From the NCBI GenBank assembly GCA_030648295.1, contig JAUSID010000170.1, positions 1-48,490 of the forward strand: 48,490 bases of DNA, written 5' to 3'. This document shows, piece after piece, positions 10,372-33,142 of the stretch (position 1 is the first letter of the stretch; every line of letters starts with the position of its first letter). The notes under the pieces are model-generated. The model did not search any database. It was not told where the DNA came from and saw only the letters and a list, made by a program, of their open reading frames with translations. The stretch comes from Opitutaceae bacterium (GTDB taxonomy: Bacteria; Verrucomicrobiota; Verrucomicrobiia; Opitutales; Opitutaceae). The position numbers and the translations under genes were made by a program.

Positions 10372-10396
10372 TCCTGGAAGCGCGGGCGTTTGTCTG

Positions 10397-10645
10397 ATTT
10401 CGGATTGCGGATTTCGGATTGCCCGGGAGCGCGGGCGTCTCGCCCGCATGGATTGGAACTGGCGCGGCCTTCCGCCACGAATCCTCGATGACTAGTCTTG
10501 GCCCTGCTCCCTGCTCCCGCTCCTGCTCCTGCTCCGCGGCGCATCACGCCGGCTGCGGGCGGGACGCCCGCGCTCCCAGGGGAACAACGCCGTACGAGTC
10601 GTCGTGGTTTGCCGAATCCGCAATCCGCAATCCGAAATCCGAAAT
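10397..10645. repeat. nested inverted repeat: heptamer arms, REP arms, CTGCTCC core
   Basis: The 297-bp gap between convergent speA and the TPR gene is filled by three layers. Outer arms are ATTKCGG heptamers: four units at 10397-10422 and inverted units at 10612-10645. The middle layer is a 23-bp REP-like sequence (GGGAGCGCGGGCGTCTCGCC and onward) at 10425-10447, with an inverted copy at 10555-10577. The centre has a CTGCTCC heptamer array at about 10504-10535. All layers are imperfect but clear. The structure may also serve as a terminator for both genes. Confidence 0.8.
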
Positions 10646-10668
10646 CGACCGACGCCCGCGCCCCCAAG

Positions 10669-12768: not shown

Positions 12769-13056
12769 AACCGCGAATGAACGCGAATCTCAGCCGGAAC
12801 AATTCAGTTCAACCGCGAATAGACGCCAATTCACGCGAATGGAGCGGACATCTTTTGGGAGCATGGAAACGATCAACCAAACGGTGACCATGATTTCACT
12901 TGGGCAATCCTCCCCGTTGTCCTCTGGAATTTGCGTCCATTCGCGTTCATTCGCGGTTATCCACTGAATCGATCCGGCTCAGAGGAAGGCATCCTGCTCG
13001 CGGAGTCTTCGCCCCAAGCTTGGTCTCATTCGCGTCCATTCGCGTTCATTCGCGGT
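12769..13056. repeat. 10-bp repeat arms (CATTCGCGTT family), inverted
   Basis: Units of ten bases built on ATTCGCGTYC occur in four places. Two groups near 12769-12788 and 12822-12840 read as AACCGCGAAT or ACGCGAAT. Two groups near 12930-12961 and 13027-13056 read as the inverse, GCGTCCATTC-GCGTTCATTC-GCGGT. The left and right groups therefore form inverted arms around a ~90-bp unique centre. Confidence 0.75.
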
Positions 13057-15192: not shown

Positions 15193-15197
15193 CTCTA

Positions 15198-15317
15198 GAA
15201 GTCAGATGTCAGACGTCAGAGGTCAGCTCCAAGTATGAATCCAGAGCCCACCACCGATTGCTGTCTTTCGCCGTCTGACCTCCGTCCTCTGACATCTGAT
15301 ATCTGGCTTCTGACCTC
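15198..15317. repeat. heptamer inverted arms (GANGTCA) between lexA and imuA
   Basis: The left arm has four direct units of GANGTCA at 15198-15225. The right arm has six inverted units (TGACNTC-like, two degenerate) at 15276-15317. They start six bases after the lexA stop and end eight bases before the imuA ATG, so the element takes up nearly the whole gap. The 50-bp loop between the arms shows no feature. Confidence 0.85.
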
Positions 15318-15325
15318 TGCTCGAA

Positions 15326-15973
15326 ATGACAGCCGCGCCCGAAAAGCTCGCGGCGCTCCGGCATCTTCTCGCCGAGCGCTTTCCCACCGTGCCCCGCACG
15401 GCGGGCCGCGTGCTGCCCACGGGAATTGCGGCGGTTGACGAGGTGACTGGCGGAATCCCGCTCAGCGCGATCACCGAGCTCGTCTGTGCCGCGCCGAGTT
15501 GCGGCAGCCAGTTGTTTTTGAGCCAGCTCCTTGCTACTGCCCGCGCGGTCCGCACGCGTGTCGCGCTGATCGACAGCACTGACTCCTTCGATCCCGGCTC
15601 GTTCGCCGAGGACTTGCTGGCCCACCTCGTGTGGGTGCGCTGCGTCGGCACGGCCCAGGCCCTCCAAGCGGCGGATTTGCTGACGCGCGACGCCAACCTC
15701 GGGCTGGTCGTGCTCGATTTGCGCCGCGCGCCACTGGCGGAATTGCGCCGCGCGCCCGCGACGCAGTGGTACCGGCTGCAACGCGCCGTCGAGCCGAGCG
15801 ACCTCGCCTTTGTGGTCGAAACGCCGCGCGCTTGCGTACCCAGCGCGCAACTACGGCTTGCGCTCGACACGCCGCATCAACCCACCGCGCTCGATCGACC
15901 ACGCATAAATCTCGTCGTCAATCTCAAGCCGACTCTGCAACGCCAGCGGCTCCAGGCCAGCGCCGGCGGCTGA
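15326..15973 (+). CDS. imuA: ImuA-like RecA-fold SOS mutagenesis protein
   Basis: 215 residues similar in layout to ImuA/SulA-like proteins, RecA relatives that work with ImuB (and usually DnaE2) in damage-induced mutagenesis. Recognisable parts are the early region RVLPTGIAAVDEVTGGIPLSAITELV, a P-loop position that reads APSCGSQ instead of GxxxxGKT, the strand TRVALIDSTDSFDP, and NLGLVVLDLRRAPL at the Walker B position. The P-loop lacks its lysine, so ATP binding is probably lost or weak. The call rests partly on its place between lexA and imuB. No LexA box precedes it; transcription from the lexA promoter is likely. Confidence 0.8.
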   Translation: MTAAPEKLAALRHLLAERFPTVPRTAGRVLPTGIAAVDEVTGGIPLSAITELVCAAPSCGSQLFLSQLLATARAVRTRVALIDSTDSFDPGSFAEDLLAHLVWVRCVGTAQALQAADLLTRDANLGLVVLDLRRAPLAELRRAPATQWYRLQRAVEPSDLAFVVETPRACVPSAQLRLALDTPHQPTALDRPRINLVVNLKPTLQRQRLQASAGG

Positions 15974-15986
15974 CGGCGGCGGCTCC

Positions 15987-16210
15987 GCCGCCGGTTTCGG
16001 GTTCTGAGTTCTGGGTTTTGGGTTCCCAGACCAAGACTCGAAACCAAGTCAGAACCGGCCGGCTCGAAACCGAATCCGAAATACATAACGAAAACCCGAC
16101 TGTAGGGCGTCAGCTTGCTGACGCCGCAACTCGAAACGCGAAACCAACTCAAAACCCAAAACGCAGAACCCAGAACTCAAAACCCAGAACCCAGAACCCA
16201 AAACCGACCC
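15987..16210. repeat. heptamer inverted arms (TTCTGGG/CCCAGAA) between imuA and imuB
   Basis: The left arm, from about 15990 to 16025, has units of TTCTGGG, with variants such as TTTTGGG. The right arm, from about 16140 to 16205, has inverted units CCCAGAA or CCCAAAA and runs up to the imuB start. Between them are looser GAAACC-type units and a separate hairpin at 16106-16125. The right arm is open in the imuB frame and would add about 32 repeat-coded residues if an earlier start were used. Confidence 0.8.
16106..16125. repeat. REP-like hairpin GGCGTCAG-CTTG-CTGACGCC
   Basis: A perfect 8-bp stem with a 4-base loop, preceded by TAG. It sits in the centre of the heptamer arms between imuA and imuB. 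It has the form of a REP unit; a role in attenuating imuB expression is possible but not shown. Confidence 0.6.
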
Positions 16211-17827
16211 ATGTTCGCCGTCCTTCACCTTGCCGATTTCGCGCTGCAAGCCGTGCTCCGCACGGAGCACGATGCGCACGCAGGTGAGCCGGCCGCGCTG
16301 TTCGACAGCACGAAAAAGAAATCGCTCGCGCTCGCGGTCAACGCCGCCGCCCGCGCCGCCGGAGTCGACGCGGGCATGACCGCGCCGCAGGCGGTCGCCC
16401 GGTGTCCGTCACTCGTCATTCGCACCCCGGATTCCGCGGCCGAAACCGAGGCGCGCGCCGCGCTGCTCGCGACCGGCTTCCTGCTGTCGCCGACGATCGA
16501 GGACACCGCACCGGGCGTTTGCACGATTGATCTTAAGGGAGCCGATCTCGAGCGAACAACCGTGGCCGCCGAAGCGGCCGTGGCCGAACTGGCGCGGCTC
16601 GATTTGTCCGCCGTCGCCGGCATCGGCCGCACTCCGCTGCTCGCGCTGTACGCGGCCCGCAGCAACCGCTTCGCACAACAACCGCGAAACCCGAAACACG
16701 AAACCCAAAACTCAGAACCCACCACTCCGAACTCAGAACCCAGAACCCAAAACCCAGAACCCAGCACCCAGCACCCAGAATTCGCTTTCGTCACCGAGGG
16801 CGCGGCGGATTACGGCGCGAGCAAGGTAGTTCATGTGGTGACGGACGAAAAAGGTTTTCTCGCGCCACTCCCGCTCTCCACCGCCGAACCGCCGCCCGTG
16901 CTGGCCGACGTTTTCGCCGGCTGGGGTATCCGCACCCTCGGCGAATTCACCGCGCTGCCCCGCGACGAAATCGTCCGACGTTTCGGCCATGAAGGACTCG
17001 CCTTCTGGCGGCGTGCCATGGGCGGCGAGCCGCGGCCGCTGCGACCGGTGACGCCGCCGCAGGAATTTTCCGCCGGCATGCTATTCGAGGAAACGGTCGA
17101 GACGCTCGAGCCGCTGCTTTTCATCCTGCGGCGTTTCGTCGAGCGACTGTCGCTCGAGTTGCGTGCGGCGCAATTCGTCGCCGCCGAGATATCGCTCACC
17201 CTCATTCTCGCGGACGACAACCACCTCGCGCGCAGTTTCCGGCTGCCGGAGCCGACGGCCGACACCGAGATCCTGTTCCGCGCGCTGCACTCTCATCTCG
17301 AGTCGCTGCACACCGACTCGCCCATCGCCGGCGTGCAGTTGCGAGTCACACCGGCGCGACCGCTCGTCCGGCAGCAGGGATTGTTCGAAACGGGCCTGCG
17401 CGATCCGCACGGGTTCGCGGAAACCCTCGCCCGCGTGGTCGCGATTGTCGGCAGCAACCGCGTCGGCACGCCAAAGCTGGAGGACACGCACCGGCCCGAC
17501 GCGGTCACGCTGGTGCCGCCGGCCGCCCTGGTGCCGCCGCCAGTCGATCCGCCGGTGCATCCGCCAATCGGACTGCCTCTCCGCCGGTATCGGCCGCCGC
17601 TGCCGGCCACGCTCGAGTTGATGGACGGAAAACCCACGTACGTTTCGGCCGGTCACTTTCACGGTGCGATCGTGGAGTTGCGCGGACCGTGGCGAAGCAG
17701 CGGCGACTGGTGGCAGAGCGATCGCGTATGGCACCGGATTGAATACGACATCGCCCTCGCCGATGGCGGCCTCTATCGGCTGCTCCGCATCGGCGACGAG
17801 TGGTTCGTGGAGGGTGAGTATGACTAA
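16211..17827 (+). CDS. imuB: ImuB-like Y-family polymerase homologue
   Basis: 538 residues from the ATG at 16211; the frame upstream is only repeat DNA. It keeps the Y-family layout: N-terminal FAVLHLADFALQAVLR, fingers region KKKSLALAVNAAARAAGVDAGMTAPQA, GVCTIDLKG at 102-110 where active polymerases have S-x-D-E, helix-hairpin motif AVAGIGRTPLLAL, and a little-finger-like domain. The catalytic Glu position reads Leu, as expected for ImuB, a non-catalytic partner in SOS mutagenesis. Residues 157-190 are a low-complexity insert coded by CCCAGAA heptamers. dnaE2, the usual third gene, does not follow; a HisN-like gene does. Its stop codon overlaps the next repeat array. Confidence 0.85.
   Translation: MFAVLHLADFALQAVLRTEHDAHAGEPAALFDSTKKKSLALAVNAAARAAGVDAGMTAPQAVARCPSLVIRTPDSAAETEARAALLATGFLLSPTIEDTAPGVCTIDLKGADLERTTVAAEAAVAELARLDLSAVAGIGRTPLLALYAARSNRFAQQPRNPKHETQNSEPTTPNSEPRTQNPEPSTQHPEFAFVTEGAADYGASKVVHVVTDEKGFLAPLPLSTAEPPPVLADVFAGWGIRTLGEFTALPRDEIVRRFGHEGLAFWRRAMGGEPRPLRPVTPPQEFSAGMLFEETVETLEPLLFILRRFVERLSLELRAAQFVAAEISLTLILADDNHLARSFRLPEPTADTEILFRALHSHLESLHTDSPIAGVQLRVTPARPLVRQQGLFETGLRDPHGFAETLARVVAIVGSNRVGTPKLEDTHRPDAVTLVPPAALVPPPVDPPVHPPIGLPLRRYRPPLPATLELMDGKPTYVSAGHFHGAIVELRGPWRSSGDWWQSDRVWHRIEYDIALADGGLYRLLRIGDEWFVEGEYD
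16679..16780 (+). repeat. in-frame heptamer array (CCCAGAA) inside imuB
   Basis: About fourteen degenerate heptamers (CCCAGAA, CCCAAAA, CCGAACT and similar), all in one orientation, lie inside imuB. They encode residues 157-190, rich in Gln, Asn, Pro, Glu, Thr and Arg (EPRTQNPEP-like). The same unit forms the arms just upstream of imuB. The flanking protein sequence is normal for the family on both sides. Confidence 0.85.
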
Positions 17828-17959
17828 AAAGGACCAAGGGACTAAAAGACCAAGGGACCAAAGGACCAGAACACCGCTTACGGCGGTGACGATCCTTTGG
17901 CCGCGGTCCCTTAGTCCTTTGGTCCCTTAGTCCCTTAGTCCTTTGGTCTTTTAGTCCCT
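17823..17959. repeat. octamer inverted arms (GGGACYAA) filling the imuB-hisN gap
   Basis: The left arm has about five units of GGGACYAA (or AAGACCAA), beginning within the last imuB codon and its TAA stop. The right arm has about seven inverted units (TTRGTCCC/TTTGGTCY) and ends one base before the ATG of the next gene. The loop is 17870-17905. The gap between the two genes therefore consists of this element and almost nothing else. Confidence 0.85.
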
Positions 17960-17960
17960 T

Positions 17961-18737
17961 ATGGATTTTTCACCTTACCGGGCGCTCATGACCGAGCTCG
18001 CGATCGAAAGCGGCACCTTCATCAAACCGCTGTTCGGCCAGGCGAAAATCGCGGTCGACACCAAGGCGGACGACACCCCGGTGACGGCGGCCGATCGCGG
18101 CGCGGAGGAAATGATGCGCGCGTTGATCCGCAAGCGGCATCCCAGCCACGGCATCATTGGAGAAGAATTCGGCAGCGAACGCGCCGACGCGGAATTCGTC
18201 TGGGTGCTCGATCCCGTCGACGGCACGAAATCCTTCATCACGGGCGTGCCACTCTGGGGAACGCTGATCGCGCTGCTGCATCAGGGACAGCCGGTGCTCG
18301 GCTGCATTCACCAGCCGATTTTGCATCAACTCGTGCTGGGCGACGGGCACACGACCACCTTGAACGCACGGCCGGTCCGCTGCCGGCCGACGACGCGAAT
18401 CGAGGCGGCGACGCTTCTCACGAGCGATCCACGCGCGCCCGCGAAACACCAGGATGGCGCCAGCTATGATGCCTTGGAGCAGCGCGCCAAACTCGCACGC
18501 ACGTGGGGCGATTGTTACGGCTATCTGCTCGTGGCCACGGGCTGGGCGGACATCGCGCTGGATCCGATCATGAACCCGTGGGATATCGCGGCGCTGGTGC
18601 CCGTGATTCGTGGAGCTGGCGGTGTGATCACCGATTGGAAGGGCGGCCCGGCCTACCCCGCTGAATCGACCGTCGCCGCCGCCACCCCGGAACTCCACGC
18701 CGCCGTGATCGCGACGCTGAATCCGAAGCCGCGTTGA
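17961..18737 (+). CDS. inositol-monophosphatase-family phosphatase, HisN-like
   Basis: 258 residues of the Mg2+-dependent IMPase/FBPase superfamily. The metal and phosphate motifs are GEEFG (first carboxylates), DPVDGTKSF at about residues 83-91, and the later MNPWDIAALVPVIRGAGG. The N-terminal DDTPVTAADRGAEE is typical of HisN-type histidinol-phosphate phosphatases, which catalyse the penultimate step of histidine synthesis; inositol or nucleotide 3'-phosphatase activity cannot be excluded. It starts directly after the octamer array, with no room for a separate leader, so it is probably transcribed from upstream or from within the repeat. Confidence 0.88.
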   Translation: MDFSPYRALMTELAIESGTFIKPLFGQAKIAVDTKADDTPVTAADRGAEEMMRALIRKRHPSHGIIGEEFGSERADAEFVWVLDPVDGTKSFITGVPLWGTLIALLHQGQPVLGCIHQPILHQLVLGDGHTTTLNARPVRCRPTTRIEAATLLTSDPRAPAKHQDGASYDALEQRAKLARTWGDCYGYLLVATGWADIALDPIMNPWDIAALVPVIRGAGGVITDWKGGPAYPAESTVAAATPELHAAVIATLNPKPR

Positions 18738-18763
18738 ATCGGCGTTGAAAATGGCACGGGCAT

Positions 18764-18835
18764 CCCTGGTCGCCTTCGGCGCCGCCAGAGGCGGGTAAAC
18801 CCTGGCCGCCTTCGGCGCCGCCGGAGGCGGGCAAG
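18764..18835. repeat. 36-bp tandem duplication
   Basis: Two adjacent 36-bp copies (18764-18799 and 18800-18835) begin CCCTGG and share CGCCTTCGGCGCCGCC and GAGGCGGG, with about five differences. Each contains the self-complementary GGCGCC and a GCCGCC/GGCGG pair, so each can fold. They sit between convergent hisN-like and queF genes. Confidence 0.75.
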
Positions 18836-18895
18836 CTTGCCCGTGTTTGTCTGATCATTGGCCTCCCGCCTCGCGAGGCGCCCATGCCGCTTCGC

Positions 18896-19264
18896 TCAGG
18901 CCTTCCTCGTCCGCTTCTGGCCGCTCCACTCGGCGGTGATTCGCGAGGTGAAACCGCCGCGTGCTTTCCAGTCGGCGATGATGCTGAGGCTCCGCGGCCG
19001 CAACACCGTGCCAAGATCGTCGCAGATCTTGTTCGTCACCTCCTCGAAAAAAATCCCCTCGTTCCGATACGCGTGGAAATACAGTTTCAGCGACTTCAGC
19101 TCGACGCAGATCTTGTCGGCGACATAACGCACCGTGATTGCCGCGAAGTCCGGATGGCCGGTGATGGGGCACACCGACGTGAACTCGTGATGCGTGTGCT
19201 CGATCACGTAATCGCGCTTCGGGGCAGGATTCGGAAAGGTCTCGAGAATTTTCGGGTCGGCCAT
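18896..19264 (-). CDS. queF: NADPH-dependent preQ0 reductase QueF
   Basis: 122 residues, short (type I) QueF. It reduces the nitrile of 7-cyano-7-deazaguanine to preQ1 in queuosine tRNA modification. The catalytic Cys is C32 in SVCPITGHPDF, with Asp at 39. The QueF signature follows: ICVELKSLKLYFHAYRNEGIFFEEVTN. It ends with ITAEWSGQKRTRKA. The ATG at 19264 is chosen because the upstream extension to 19342 is repeat DNA. No preQ1 riboswitch is recognisable upstream, where a heptamer array lies instead. Confidence 0.95.
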   Translation of the reverse strand: MADPKILETFPNPAPKRDYVIEHTHHEFTSVCPITGHPDFAAITVRYVADKICVELKSLKLYFHAYRNEGIFFEEVTNKICDDLGTVLRPRSLSIIADWKARGGFTSRITAEWSGQKRTRKA

Positions 19265-19271
19265 GGCGAGA

Positions 19272-19356
19272 GTGACAAGTGACGAGTGATGAGTGACAAG
19301 GTCAGAACGATAACGGCGCGGCTCAAACTTGCCACTCGTCACGTGTCACTCGTCAC
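19272..19356. repeat. heptamer inverted arms (GTGACRA) between rny and queF
   Basis: Four direct heptamers GTGACAA/GTGACGA/GTGATGA occupy 19272-19299. Inverted units (TCGTCAC, GTGTCAC, TTGCCAC) occupy 19329-19356. The arms start eight bases before the queF start codon and end 19 bases before the rny stop, filling the gap between two genes on the same strand. Confidence 0.85.
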
Positions 19357-19375
19357 TGCGTCGCCCGCGGCGCCG

Positions 19376-20989: not shown

Positions 20990-22996
20990 TCAAGATTTCT
21001 CCGGTGGGTTTTCTCCCGCGCCAGCCCGTACCTGTCTTTTTTGCGGCGCAAAAACCGGGAGCGCGTGATCCAACACCGCCTGCATCCGCGCCAGGGCGGC
21101 GGGTTCACCATCGCTGGCATCGGTTTGCATCAGGACATAGGCCCAGCGATCGGCGCGGGCATGGGCCACCCGGTTCCAGCCATCGCGCAGCACCCGCTGC
21201 CAGTGCGTGGCCACGATGGCATCGCCGCCAATGAACCAATAGGCGGTGAGCTGCGGCACCACGACCGGGCCGCGTGGCGTCGACACCTCACGACGGACCC
21301 GCAATACGGTGGCGGGAAAGGTGCCGCGACCCGCCGGCCCAAATCGAAACTGATGCTCCGCCGCGCCCGCCACCGTCCAGCCTTGCCCGACGAGGCAGAG
21401 TTCGGGCCGGTGAATCGAGGTGCGGTCGCGGCCGCTGAGCACGATGGACAATAAAACCTGGCGGCGGGGATCGGCGACCGGAACATATGACTTCCGGGAG
21501 AAGCCCGTATCCGCGGGCAGGATATCGCGTTCCACCGCGGTGACCTCGGTCCGCCGGCCAATCCAATCGACGCCGAGAAAGGCGGGCAGTTCCACCGGAT
21601 CGCGGCCGTCGGCCGTGAGTGCCACGCCCGCTTCACCACGCGCGGGCAGGTTCGCGAGATGGTGGAGGAACAACATCTCGGCCGCGGCGAGCGCGACGAC
21701 GACACCGGTGACGAGCGCCAATTGCGGATTGCGGATTGCGGATTGCGGATTGGCGGCTACGTCGGTCCGACTGGCGGCGTTTTCCGTTTCCGTTTCCGTT
21801 TCCGGTTTCCGGTTTCCGGTCTCCGGTTTTTCGAAATCCGCAATCCGCAATCCGCGATCCGCAATTGCCGCCTCCGGCCACCACCGCCGGATGGCGGCGA
21901 TTGCCGCCAGCACCCCGCCGAGGACGATGACAAACACCCCGAACCCCATGATCTTGTGCGCGACATCGCCCCACTTGGGTCCGCCGATTTGCGCGGCGAA
22001 GATGATGGCGACAATCCGCGCGACGTTGCCGACATAGACCAGCGGAAAACACAGCGCGACGACCAGGGCGCGCCGTCCCGTACCGCGAAAGTTGAGGTAT
22101 CCGGCGAGGAGTGACAGTGCGACCATGGCGGTGAGCGAGCGCACGCCCGAGCACGCGGCCGCGACGTCATAGTGGTAGCGTCCGTCCGGCGCCACGAGCT
22201 GGGTTCCGCTTTGCAGCACCGCAATGCCGGCCGCACGAGCGATCGCGCCGCTGGCATCGACGACGCCCATCCGCAGCCAGAACCCCAGCGAGTCGAGCAC
22301 GTTGATCGGAATCGCGAACACCATGAACCCGAGCGGAAACGCCGCCGCCGCGCCCCAGCGGCGGCCACCGGCCAGCCGGACCAAGCCCCAGGTGAAAAGA
22401 AGAAAGGCGACGATGCTCAGCCGGGTCTGCTGCGCCGCGAAGCCGAGCGCGTGCAGCCCGAAGCCGGACAGCAGGGCGGCGAACGGCGCTAGAATTTCGG
22501 ATTTCGGATTTCGGATTTCGGATTGGCGGGTGCCCCGAGCGATAAAGGCCTCATGCTGATCGGAGCGTCTGCTATCCGGTTTCCGGTCTCCGGTATCCGG
22601 TATCAGCGAATCCGGTTTCCGGTTTCCGGTTTCCGAAATCGTCTCCCCCGGTATCCGGTCTTCGGTCTCCGGTATCAGGGCATCCGGTTTCCGGTCTCCG
22701 GTTTCCGGAATTGTTGAATCCGCAATCCGCAATCCGCGATCCGCAATTTGCGGGTCCGCCATCCTGACGTTTCGCCACAGCAGCCACGCGCTCAGCCCGA
22801 GTATCAGCCAGCCATGCTCCGTCTCCGATCCGGGATTCGACCACTGAAACGTCCACCAGTAGAAGAGCGACGGCGTGTTCACATAACCCCGCACAGCATT
22901 CCCGAAGAATCCGAACAACAGCGCCGCCATGAGCGCGCACAACACGGTCGCCAAAACCGGCGTGAGGCGGTGGGGTTTTGCGGCTGGATTGCTCAT
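20990..22996 (-). CDS. exosortase fused to EpsI-type domain, with repeat-coded linkers
   Basis: 668 residues. Exosortases are membrane transpeptidase-like enzymes that process PEP-CTERM-type proteins in bacteria making exopolysaccharide. The catalytic set is present: Cys282 (AAACSGVRSL), Arg327 (GNVARIV) and His347 (DVAHKIMGF). The C-terminal ~240 residues form an EpsI-like periplasmic domain with HRPELCLVGQGW. Between membrane helices 2 and 3, residues 82-168, and before EpsI, residues 377-426, the protein is low-complexity and coded by heptamer repeats. Without these the length would be near 530, usual for the fusion type. It is divergent from the glycosyltransferase at 23043, consistent with an exopolysaccharide locus. 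Confidence 0.92.
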   Translation of the reverse strand: MSNPAAKPHRLTPVLATVLCALMAALLFGFFGNAVRGYVNTPSLFYWWTFQWSNPGSETEHGWLILGLSAWLLWRNVRMADPQIADRGLRIADSTIPETGDRKPDALIPETEDRIPGETISETGNRKPDSLIPDTGDRKPDSRRSDQHEAFIARGTRQSEIRNPKSEILAPFAALLSGFGLHALGFAAQQTRLSIVAFLLFTWGLVRLAGGRRWGAAAAFPLGFMVFAIPINVLDSLGFWLRMGVVDASGAIARAAGIAVLQSGTQLVAPDGRYHYDVAAACSGVRSLTAMVALSLLAGYLNFRGTGRRALVVALCFPLVYVGNVARIVAIIFAAQIGGPKWGDVAHKIMGFGVFVIVLGGVLAAIAAIRRWWPEAAIADRGLRIADFEKPETGNRKPETETETENAASRTDVAANPQSAIRNPQLALVTGVVVALAAAEMLFLHHLANLPARGEAGVALTADGRDPVELPAFLGVDWIGRRTEVTAVERDILPADTGFSRKSYVPVADPRRQVLLSIVLSGRDRTSIHRPELCLVGQGWTVAGAAEHQFRFGPAGRGTFPATVLRVRREVSTPRGPVVVPQLTAYWFIGGDAIVATHWQRVLRDGWNRVAHARADRWAYVLMQTDASDGEPAALARMQAVLDHALPVFAPQKRQVRAGAGENPPEKS
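21719..21868 (-). repeat. in-frame nested heptamer hairpin in exosortase, second insert
   Basis: Outer arms are ATTGCGG heptamers, left about 21724-21753 and inverted right about 21836-21866. The inner part holds GTTTCCG/TTTCCG units at about 21780-21830. The element codes residues 377-426 (IADRGLRIAD, PETGNRKPE, NPQSAIRNPQ), between the exosortase core and the EpsI domain. Confidence 0.85.
22493..22753 (-). repeat. in-frame nested heptamer hairpin in exosortase, first insert
   Basis: Outer arms are ATTTCGG/ATTGCGG heptamers (about 22494-22526, and inverted about 22722-22750). The inner part holds many GTTTCCG, GTATCCG and GTCTCCG units at about 22568-22715. It codes residues 82-168, where 21-base steps give a seven-residue pattern (PETGDRK, PDTGDRK). 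It lies in a loop between membrane segments. Confidence 0.85.
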
Positions 22997-33040: not shown

Positions 33041-33051
33041 AGTTGGTCGAA

Positions 33052-33142
33052 GATATTAATCCTGTTGGCAGACATTAATCCTGTTGGCGGCGATATTAAT
33101 CCTGTTGGCCCAGGATTTCGCCGAGACATTAATCCTGTTGGC
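33052..33142. repeat. four direct 18-bp repeats
   Basis: GAYATTAATCCTGTTGGC occurs at 33052-33069, 33071-33088, 33092-33109 and 33125-33142, alternating GAT and GAC at the third base. Spacers are 1, 3 and 15 bases. The repeats start 11 bases after the rng stop and mark the edge between housekeeping genes and the accessory block. They are too short and too tightly spaced for a CRISPR array. Confidence 0.9.

What the first reader, a model, noticed from the sequence alone, without database searches (positions are those of the whole stretch)
15198..19356. A system of 7-8-bp degenerate repeats with a different unit at each site
Between lexA and rny four gaps are filled by GANGTCA, CCCAGAA, GGGACYAA and GTGACRA arrays, each as two inverted arms. 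Similar arrays (ATTKCGG, GTTTCCG, a 10-bp unit) occur elsewhere in the window. Same architecture but different sequence implies a process that makes repeats from many seeds, not one mobile family. Cyanobacterial STRR arrays are the nearest known parallel (established); a common generating mechanism is inference.
Basis: partly seen in the sequence, partly recalled or inferred. Interest (0 to 1): 0.8.

Follow-up and report, generated by a model that had tools for sequence, protein, structure and literature searches.

The report
Paired seven-base repeat arrays
This bacterium's genome is peppered with short stretches in which a seven- or eight-letter DNA word is repeated, often in facing pairs that nearly always point the same way; such repeats are known in a few other bacteria, but the fixed direction and the shared vocabulary of words are clues to how they are made.

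Summary
In detail: four gaps between lexA and rny carry period-7/8 arrays in inverted arms, and the window has 13 period-7 and 3 period-8 stretches against none in simulations. The inference "different unit at each site, hence many seeds" does not: the four units tested give 216-451 pattern hits each (several per array) in this 9.1-Mb, probably Opitutaceae, genome, and the same words recur patchily in congeners. Arrays are dense (84 period-7 in 0.70 Mb), mostly intergenic, and also in frame in ImuB and an exosortase. The main new point is polarity: over 112 inverted pairs a given word nearly always sits on the same side (130 same vs 20 opposite comparisons). In three array-rich genomes non-direct neighbours are G-rich-then-C-rich 43 times and the reverse 3 times (27 mixed), against a 64:36 background. 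Arms are usually not exact inverted copies; G008 has arrays without detectable reverse transcriptase or Ku. I read this as a new variant of the known heptamer-array kind (cyanobacterial STRR, Xanthomonas GGGAATC) and favour directional repeat synthesis from two facing DNA ends, with the word supplied in trans; that mechanism is inference.

The parts
15197..15319 (.). lexA-imuA gap: GTCAGAN array (left arm 15197-15226) and its inverted arm (about 15274-15319)
   Evidence: RNA fold z -4.7
15992..16210 (.). imuA-imuB gap: GGGTTCT/GGGTTTT left arm 15992-16025 and AACCCAR right arm 16146-16206; the imuB start codon (16211) lies within a few bases of the array
16679..16786 (+). GAAACCC then AACCCAG array inside imuB, in frame, about residues 156-191, between the IMS (15-149) and IMS_C (284-380) domains
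   Evidence: ImuB is 538 aa here, estimated 484-490 aa in 14 of 35 relatives (after dropping 2 partial and 8 duplicate loci)
17822..17961 (.). imuB-IMPase gap: GGGACYAA octamer array and inverted arm; the imuB stop codon TAA lies in the array edge and the IMPase ATG overlaps the other edge
   Evidence: RNA fold z -8.8
19270..19357 (.). queF-rny gap: GTGACRA array and inverted arm
   Evidence: RNA fold z -5.1
10389..10651 (.). GGATTKC left arm (10389-10425) and inverted right arm (10606-10651); the spacer holds another 27-bp inverted element (10422-10448/10554-10580)
21708..21871 (.). array pair (GCGGATT ... TTTCCGG, AATCCGC) inside the exosortase gene, in frame, about residues 361-415, between the EpsH (150-350) and DUF3485 (427-636) matches
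22484..22755 (.). array pair (CGGATTT ... TCCGGTA/TTTCCGG, AATCCGC) inside the same gene, about residues 66-156, at and before the start of the EpsH match
12929..13054 (+). two short arrays of a 10-bp unit (ATTCGCGTCC); related decamer arrays in L044 and L066

Best explanation
The arrays belong to one genome-wide class of 7/8-bp array insertions written with a limited vocabulary of words. SHOWN: words recur at many loci; the same words recur patchily in related species; arrays come singly or as inverted pairs; within pairs a given word nearly always keeps one polarity; the two arms are usually not exact inverted copies. INFERRED: each array is laid down quickly by directional (5' to 3') repeat synthesis at a DNA 3' end. 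When two ends face each other (a break or gap) both are extended towards the centre with a word supplied in trans (copied from another array or a short template), and the ends are then joined. This gives word...reverse-complement word, the polarity of a head-to-head telomere fusion. Afterwards the arrays decay by point substitution (seen at one orthologous locus). Insertions survive mainly in gene gaps or where the reading frame stays open inside a gene, as between domains here. The lexA-rny gaps are four such scars.
For: Pattern hits (overlapping, several per array) with the pattern read backwards as control: GTCAGAN 451 vs 14, GGGACYAA 216 vs 0, AATCCGN 288 vs 0. Polarity: 130 same vs 20 opposite comparisons between loci of one word class (18 of the 20 from the AGCTATC class), GTCAGAN 12 of 12 pairs; AATCCGN in G006, G017, G001 and G008, 23 of 23 opposite-strand pairs within 400 bp, counted by eye in the printed part of the list. 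Neighbouring arrays that are not direct copies: 43 G-then-C vs 3 C-then-G in three genomes (27 mixed), and 7 vs 0 (3 mixed; 6 of the 7 from G006) in a replicate predicted beforehand. The background in array-free gaps is 507 vs 282, giving p = 4e-6 and 0.045. Mutually unrelated words keep it too: 44 vs 8 over all sets, p = 0.001 against background. Unit order matched between arms in only 11 of 112 pairs at p<=0.05. Same gap, different word in different species. Decay by substitution: arms 83% and 85% identical, flanks 87% and 89%.
Against: No enzyme is identified. Ku occurs in 3 of 27 genus genomes, all three array-bearing, but array-rich G006 (85% complete) and G008 lack it; RVT_1 is absent from G008. 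Spacers between arms (quartiles 13, 35 and 76 bp) are not predicted by simple joining of two extended ends. In the contigs selected for TCAGCTN the same-word pairs go the other way by composition (9 G-first vs 23 C-first), so G-richness of the 5' arm is not universal. Over distinct words in inverted pairs it is 39 vs 15 with 10 equal, p = 0.14 against background; without the TCAGCTN-selected set 30 vs 6, p = 0.01. In the three genomes alone the unrelated-word test is 13 vs 2, p = 0.055. Unrelated neighbours could be remnants of nested pairs. A directional gradient inside arrays is seen only for GYCAGAN (T-type units later in 19 vs 3 G000 arrays and 29 vs 9 viral-contig arrays, but 7 vs 6 in G022) and not in general.
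Confidence: 0.35

Rival explanations
1. Copy-and-paste hairpin elements (MITE- or REPIN-like): each word family is a small mobile element whose terminal inverted arms happen to be heptamer arrays; polarity is inherited from the founder.
For: Polarity is nearly constant within a word; words are dispersed over many loci; REP-like palindromes sit in the same gaps and Y1_Tnp matches occur in 42 of 57 genomes.
Against: Array-masked flanks and spacers of 68 G000 arrays gave no widely shared body, only 43 hits of 24-74 nt that look like other dispersed elements (not tested word by word). Unit order is not shared between GYCAGAN loci beyond shuffles. About 60% of arrays have no detectable inverted arm. 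Neighbouring arrays of unrelated words also keep the polarity. G008 has one Y1_Tnp match.
Confidence: 0.22
2. Replication slippage expands heptamers from local seeds and hairpin-templated copying makes the second arm (the usual reading of STRR and long simple-sequence repeats).
For: Same-variant units cluster inside GYCAGAN arrays (0.745 vs 0.531 expected). Heptamers are the commonest long repeats in most genomes studied by Mrazek 2007, who proposed slippage (as described in PMC4679880, introduction).
Against: Words are shared genome-wide and between species rather than local. The most variable base shows no clear neighbour correlation (p = 0.064 in G000, none in G022). Arms are mostly not register-matched. 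The one orthologous array pair differs in length only by 15 nt at the outer edge of one arm.
Confidence: 0.2
3. The pairs are kept by selection as RNA hairpins (terminators, attenuators, mRNA 3'-end protection); repeats are only a way to make long stems.
For: Strong predicted folds of the three pairs tested; array gaps are divergent in 5 of 50, 2 of 27 and 2 of 29 cases, where about 15% of all gaps and 25-27% of gap bases are divergent.
Against: Mismatched positions are not biased to G-U in the sense RNA: 42 G-U vs 57 A-C over 24 pairs. Swapping the arms hardly changes stem stability, so stability cannot explain polarity (argument from knowledge). Many arrays are single or lie inside genes. 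No Rfam match at gathering threshold in the window.
Confidence: 0.1
4. Telomerase-like or DRT-type reverse transcriptases make the tandem words as cDNA, which is captured at breaks.
For: DRT10 makes tandem-repeat cDNA with a 9-nt unit from an RNA template and tolerates many template sequences (PMC12632851, passages). G000 and G022 have two RVT_1 matches each.
Against: Array-rich G008 (97% complete) has no RVT_1 match; G023 has one, yet 100 kb of it held no period-7 array.
Confidence: 0.06

Closest known systems
Short tandemly repeated repetitive (STRR) heptamers of heterocystous cyanobacteria
   Same: Dispersed 7-bp degenerate arrays, several words per genome, mainly intergenic (recalled)
   Different: Inverted pairing and a polarity rule are not part of the definition as I recall it; the Xanthomonas/Nostoc paper notes only a few paired repeats in Anabaena (PMC4692102, passages)
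GGGAATC heptamer repeats of Xanthomonas (PMC4692102)
   Same: Heptamers with variable positions, 186 and 183 per genome, 70 and 75 convergent pairs, rare between divergent genes, repeats of prominent length not at the same genes in two species (section 10)
   Different: One word; here many words, octamers too, arrays in frame inside genes, neighbouring arms of unrelated words
TAACTGA repeats of Beggiatoaceae, cyanobacteria and Bacteroidetes (PMC4679880)
   Same: Heptamer direct repeats in gaps, patchy distribution across phyla
   Different: One word, mostly just upstream of start codons, one indirect repeat reported beside 169 sets of direct repeats (abstract)
REP/REPIN palindromes with RAYT transposases
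   Same: Short dispersed inverted elements in gaps; REP-like elements share gaps with the arrays here
   Different: Defined palindrome sequence, not tandem words (recalled); Y1_Tnp copy number does not follow arrays
Interstitial telomeric repeats from head-to-head fusions
   Same: Degenerate short words, G-rich strand pointing to the centre on both sides (recalled)
   Different: Eukaryotic, one word, telomerase (recalled)

Membership tests
STRR / long simple-sequence heptamer repeats | Many dispersed degenerate tandem arrays of a 7-bp unit, in excess over chance | tested here: met
   84 period-7 arrays in 700,871 bases vs 0 in a second-order Markov control
STRR / long simple-sequence heptamer repeats | Mainly intergenic | tested here: met
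   50 of 68, 26 of 30 and 29 of 45 arrays with a home-made gene caller
Xanthomonas-type convergent heptamer pairs | Convergent G-rich arms on opposite strands in close proximity | tested here: met
   exception in the TCAGCTN-selected contigs
REP/REPIN (RAYT-dependent) | A RAYT whose number tracks the repeats | tested here: not met
   G008: 1 Y1_Tnp match with 130 period-7 arrays per Mb; G003: 23 matches, 0 period-7 arrays in a small 40-kb sample
MITE | Common body between terminal inverted repeats | tested here: inconclusive
   no widely shared body among masked flanks and spacers of 68 arrays, but 43 hits of 24-74 nt exist and no test per word was made
MITE | Target-site duplication | not tested
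   no empty site in a close enough relative was obtained
Telomerase/DRT10-type product | Reverse transcriptase gene in array-rich genomes | tested here: not met
   no RVT_1 match in G008; genome 97% complete, so absence is not certain

The most novel reading that the evidence does not exclude
The facing arrays are scars of a bacterial repair process that builds short G-biased tandem words on both 3' ends of a break and then fuses them, in effect head-to-head telomere-like fusions in a bacterial chromosome, with the word taken from a vocabulary shared across a genus and in part beyond it.
Probability: 0.12. Interest if true: 0.9.

Novelty: new variant of a known kind. Interest (0 to 1): 0.6.

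Why it matters
How bacterial heptamer arrays arise is unsettled; slippage with a 7-nt polymerase footprint has been proposed (Mrazek 2007, as described in PMC4679880). A nearly fixed polarity of facing arms, which stem stability cannot explain, together with a vocabulary that is not local to the site and large differences in array density between congeners, turns this into a testable question: find the genes that separate array-rich from array-poor species and catch new insertions. If the end-synthesis reading is right, these bacteria possess a repeat-writing repair activity that I found described nowhere in my searches.

Tried and rejected
1. Local seeds: rejected as the general rule; words recur genome-wide. 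The reversed control for CCCARAA is not clean (104 hits vs 327), I think because the reversed pattern resembles the word itself.

2. Exact inverted duplication of one arm: 11 of 112 pairs at p<=0.05 under unit shuffling (a set built separately from the 112); the test is weak with 3-5 units per arm.

3. RNA selection through G-U pairs: 42 vs 57, the wrong way.

4. A general gradient along arrays: none that is consistent over the five sets, although GYCAGAN shows one in two of three sets.

5. Sharing of unit strings between loci as a copy signature: no excess.

6. Reverse transcriptase, RAYT and Ku as drivers: no consistent presence.

7. Plasmid and phage collections: two arrays against plasmids and one of them against phages gave no match; the low-complexity filter may hide them. 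IMG/VR contigs gave exact hits: 80 stretches for GTCAGAN vs 10 for the reversed control, 116 for TCAGCTN, 9 for GGGACYAA. The GTCAGAN contigs are array-rich and of 35-70% GC; some may be host DNA, so no claim of viral carriage is made. Apart from the words used for selection, word sharing between these contig sets and the genomes is little above the permuted null.

8. Word clusters by single linkage merged 94 of 112 pairs; I judge (no simulation run) that this percolates by chance, and I drew nothing from it.

9. G007/G010 (95% identical over 6.7 kb): the two GGGACYAA loci compared from each share no flanks, but the counterpart sites were not found, so gain or loss is not shown. A query for the counterpart of a G012 array in G026 found only dispersed repeats.

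10. Strain-level variation: no near-identical strain was found; the closest lexA in the genus was 91% identical in protein.
Full report
WHAT IS THERE. The window (G000:C249) is from a 9.12-Mb, 294-contig genome. Of 32 ImuB relatives found in named genomes, 31 are Opitutaceae or other Verrucomicrobiota MAGs and one is an acidobacterial MAG, so the genome is probably of Opitutaceae. Around the finding lie lexA, imuA, imuB, an inositol monophosphatase gene, queF and rny (Pfam matches; imuA had none and is named by position). Four gaps carry period-7 or period-8 arrays as two inverted arms. In the window 13 period-7 and 3 period-8 stretches pass the scan, some overlapping, against a mean of 0.0 in 20 Markov simulations. 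The imuB stop codon and the IMPase start codon touch the edges of the octamer array.

GENOME-WIDE. In 40 stretches of G000 including the window (700,871 bases; one all-N stretch dropped) there are 84 period-7 and 15 period-8 arrays against 0 and 1 in a second-order Markov control. G022 and G008 (400 kb each) have 56 and 52 period-7 arrays against 0 and 2; the densities are 120, 140 and 130 per Mb. After merging overlaps the period-7/8 arrays number 68, 30 and 45. Period 14 is also high; periods 6, 9 and 12 are raised too, and coding repeats may account for part of that. The window's units are not private to their sites. Pattern hits in three-unit form (overlapping, several per array) are: GTCAGAN 451 (reversed control 14), GGGACYAA 216 (0), AATCCGN 288 (0), CCCARAA 327 (104, control not clean). 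GTGACRA was not counted. Pairs of sampled G000 loci sharing a unit number 37 against 5.2 expected, at most 13 in 200 trials, when letters within units are permuted.

DISTRIBUTION. The same words recur patchily in relatives: GTCAGAN in 12 of 57 genomes, with 275 hits in G000, 152 in G022 and at most 9 elsewhere; GGGACYAA in 19 of 57; CCCARAA in 14 of 57; AATCCGN in 12 of 27. Samples of 16 further genomes gave 138 period-7 arrays per Mb in G006, 100 in G002, 50 in G004 and 20 in G031, and none in the other 12, among them 100 kb each of G018 and G023; several of the 12 samples were only 17-40 kb, and G017, with none in 17 kb, has 67 AATCCGN hits.

ORTHOLOGOUS GAPS. The lexA-imuA-imuB region and the sequence after imuB were compared in relatives. 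In 4 of the 20 stretches (L198, L200, L201, L204) the script found no imuA or imuB to compare. Some species have compact gaps without arrays (2-42 bp between lexA, imuA and imuB in L080, L084, L088, L094, L096); others have arrays of other words in the same gaps. After imuB: GGACYACT in L072, GGACCAAR in L073, TTTTGGA in L082, TAAGCTN in L083, TCAGCTN in L089. The ImuB linker holds different arrays in the window, L072 (a hexamer) and L093, and probably L073 (contig edge). L083 and L089 share 88.9% of the imuB sequence but their left arms use different words. One orthologous array pair was found between G026 and G012, inside an open reading frame of a probable membrane protein: arms 83% and 85% identical, flanks 87% and 89%, one gap position inside the arms and 15 in the whole alignment, lying at the outer edge of the left arm, frame open in both. 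There the arrays age mainly by substitution.

PLACE. By a home-made gene caller 50 of 68 (G000), 26 of 30 (G022) and 29 of 45 (G008) arrays are intergenic; 16, 1 and 14 are coding; 2, 3 and 2 lie on edges. Of assignable array gaps 5 of 50, 2 of 27 and 2 of 29 are divergent, where about 15% of all gaps and 25-27% of gap bases are. In the window the coding arrays lie between the domains of ImuB and of the exosortase, and at or before the start of its first domain.

ANATOMY OF GYCAGAN. In G000 and G022 the last base of a unit and the second base of the next are coupled (A then C 48:8, C then T 40:5, T then T 47:5, G either 31:29 in G000; A then C 73:5, C then T 17:2, T then T 31:3, G then C 44:14 in G022), so about five unit variants exist; viral-contig arrays use mostly A or G then T. 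The order of the last base shows no clear neighbour correlation (lag 1 p = 0.064 in G000; one lag of three at p = 0.032 in G022) and no excess of shared strings between loci. The C/T state clusters (0.745 vs 0.531) and T-type units tend to lie later in G000 (19 vs 3) and in viral contigs (29 vs 9), not in G022 (7 vs 6). Over arrays in general no gradient is consistent; single sets show one (for example G-to-A in the TCAGCTN contigs, C-to-G in G008).

POLARITY. Inverted pairs of one word class within 250 bp were collected from G000, G022, G008, orthologous loci and IMG/VR contigs (160 stretches: all 80 for GTCAGAN, 80 of 116 for TCAGCTN): 115 pairs, 112 unique. Between loci with an identical word class the 5' arm is the same strand in 130 comparisons and opposite in 20, 18 of these in AGCTATC; GTCAGAN is 12 of 12 pairs. 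These comparisons are not independent, since one locus enters several. By composition the 5' arm has more G than C in 77 pairs and fewer in 25 (10 equal); the TCAGCTN-selected contigs are the exception with 15 vs 20. Over distinct words it is 39 vs 15 with 10 equal, p = 0.14 against the background below; without the TCAGCTN-selected set 30 vs 6, p = 0.01. In the printed part, 23 opposite-strand AATCCGN pairs within 400 bp in G006, G017, G001 and G008 are all minus-then-plus (my count by eye). Neighbouring arrays within 200 bp that are not direct copies number 73 in the three genomes: 43 G-rich then C-rich, 3 the reverse, 12 both G-rich, 15 both C-rich (pairs with zero skew dropped); with stricter arrays 23 vs 1. 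The prediction for a replicate was written down in the same step as the new stretches were fetched and before they were read; it gave 7 vs 0 with 3 mixed, 6 of the 7 from G006 and 1 from G002. Array-free gaps have a bias of their own, 507 vs 282 (353 gaps, windows not independent, skew of at least 4); against that 64% the figures give p = 4e-6 and 0.045. Unrelated words: 44 vs 8 over all sets (p = 0.001), 13 vs 2 in the three genomes (p = 0.055), 24 vs 6 with stricter arrays (p = 0.05). In the TCAGCTN-selected contigs same-word pairs are 9 vs 23, though the words there mostly keep a polarity of their own.

MECHANISM. Word polarity that is nearly fixed within words and leans to G-rich 5' arms needs a process that knows direction. 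Stem stability does not. RNA pairing is not favoured by the mismatch pattern (42 G-U, 57 A-C over 24 pairs). The arms are mostly not register-matched, spacers and flanks share no general body, and words come from outside the site. The simplest picture that fits is extension of two facing 3' ends with a word supplied in trans, followed by joining and slow decay. Extension, joining and trans-supply are inferred; spacers of tens of bases are not explained. Neither RVT_1 nor Ku is common to the array-rich genomes, and Y1_Tnp is down to one match in G008.

LITERATURE. Xanthomonas GGGAATC repeats include 70 and 75 convergent pairs, are rare between divergent genes, and those of prominent length are not at the same genes in two species (PMC4692102, section 10 and passages). 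TAACTGA repeats are reported from Beggiatoaceae and one relative, Cyanobacteria and Bacteroidetes (PMC4679880, abstract, introduction and section 24). DRT10 makes tandem-repeat cDNA with a 9-nt unit (PMC12632851, passages). My nine searches of the held library listed no paper that by title or abstract start deals with such arrays in Verrucomicrobiota or with a polarity rule over many words; most subscription papers are not in that library. STRR and telomere-fusion details are recalled.

Noticed in passing
window 10422-10448 and 10554-10580; L471 300-2800: 27-bp GC-rich inverted elements (REP-like) inside the spacer between heptamer arms; similar short hits in L039, L060 and L066. A G012 array locus used as query gave 75 matches in G026, most of them to other short dispersed repeats beside the array.
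   Followed up: partly
window 18764-18835: Two nearly identical tandem copies of a 36-bp GC-rich sequence (CCCTGGYCGCCTTCGGCGCCGCC...) in the IMPase-queF gap, the one gap of the stretch without heptamers.
   Followed up: no
L083 621-728: CCGGAAA and AATCCGC arrays in another Opitutia genome, whether in a reading frame not checked; this stretch has no BLAST counterpart in L089.
   Followed up: partly
L199 (G022) downstream of imuB: An octamer array GGGATTGA of about eight exact units, much cleaner than most, possibly young.
   Followed up: no
Viral-contig loci L211-L290: IMG/VR contigs of 35-70% GC selected for GTCAGAN carry 305 period-7 arrays in 724 kb; either host contamination or arrays shared very widely.
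   Followed up: partly
window 33051-33109: A 19-bp tandem repeat of three copies.
   Followed up: no
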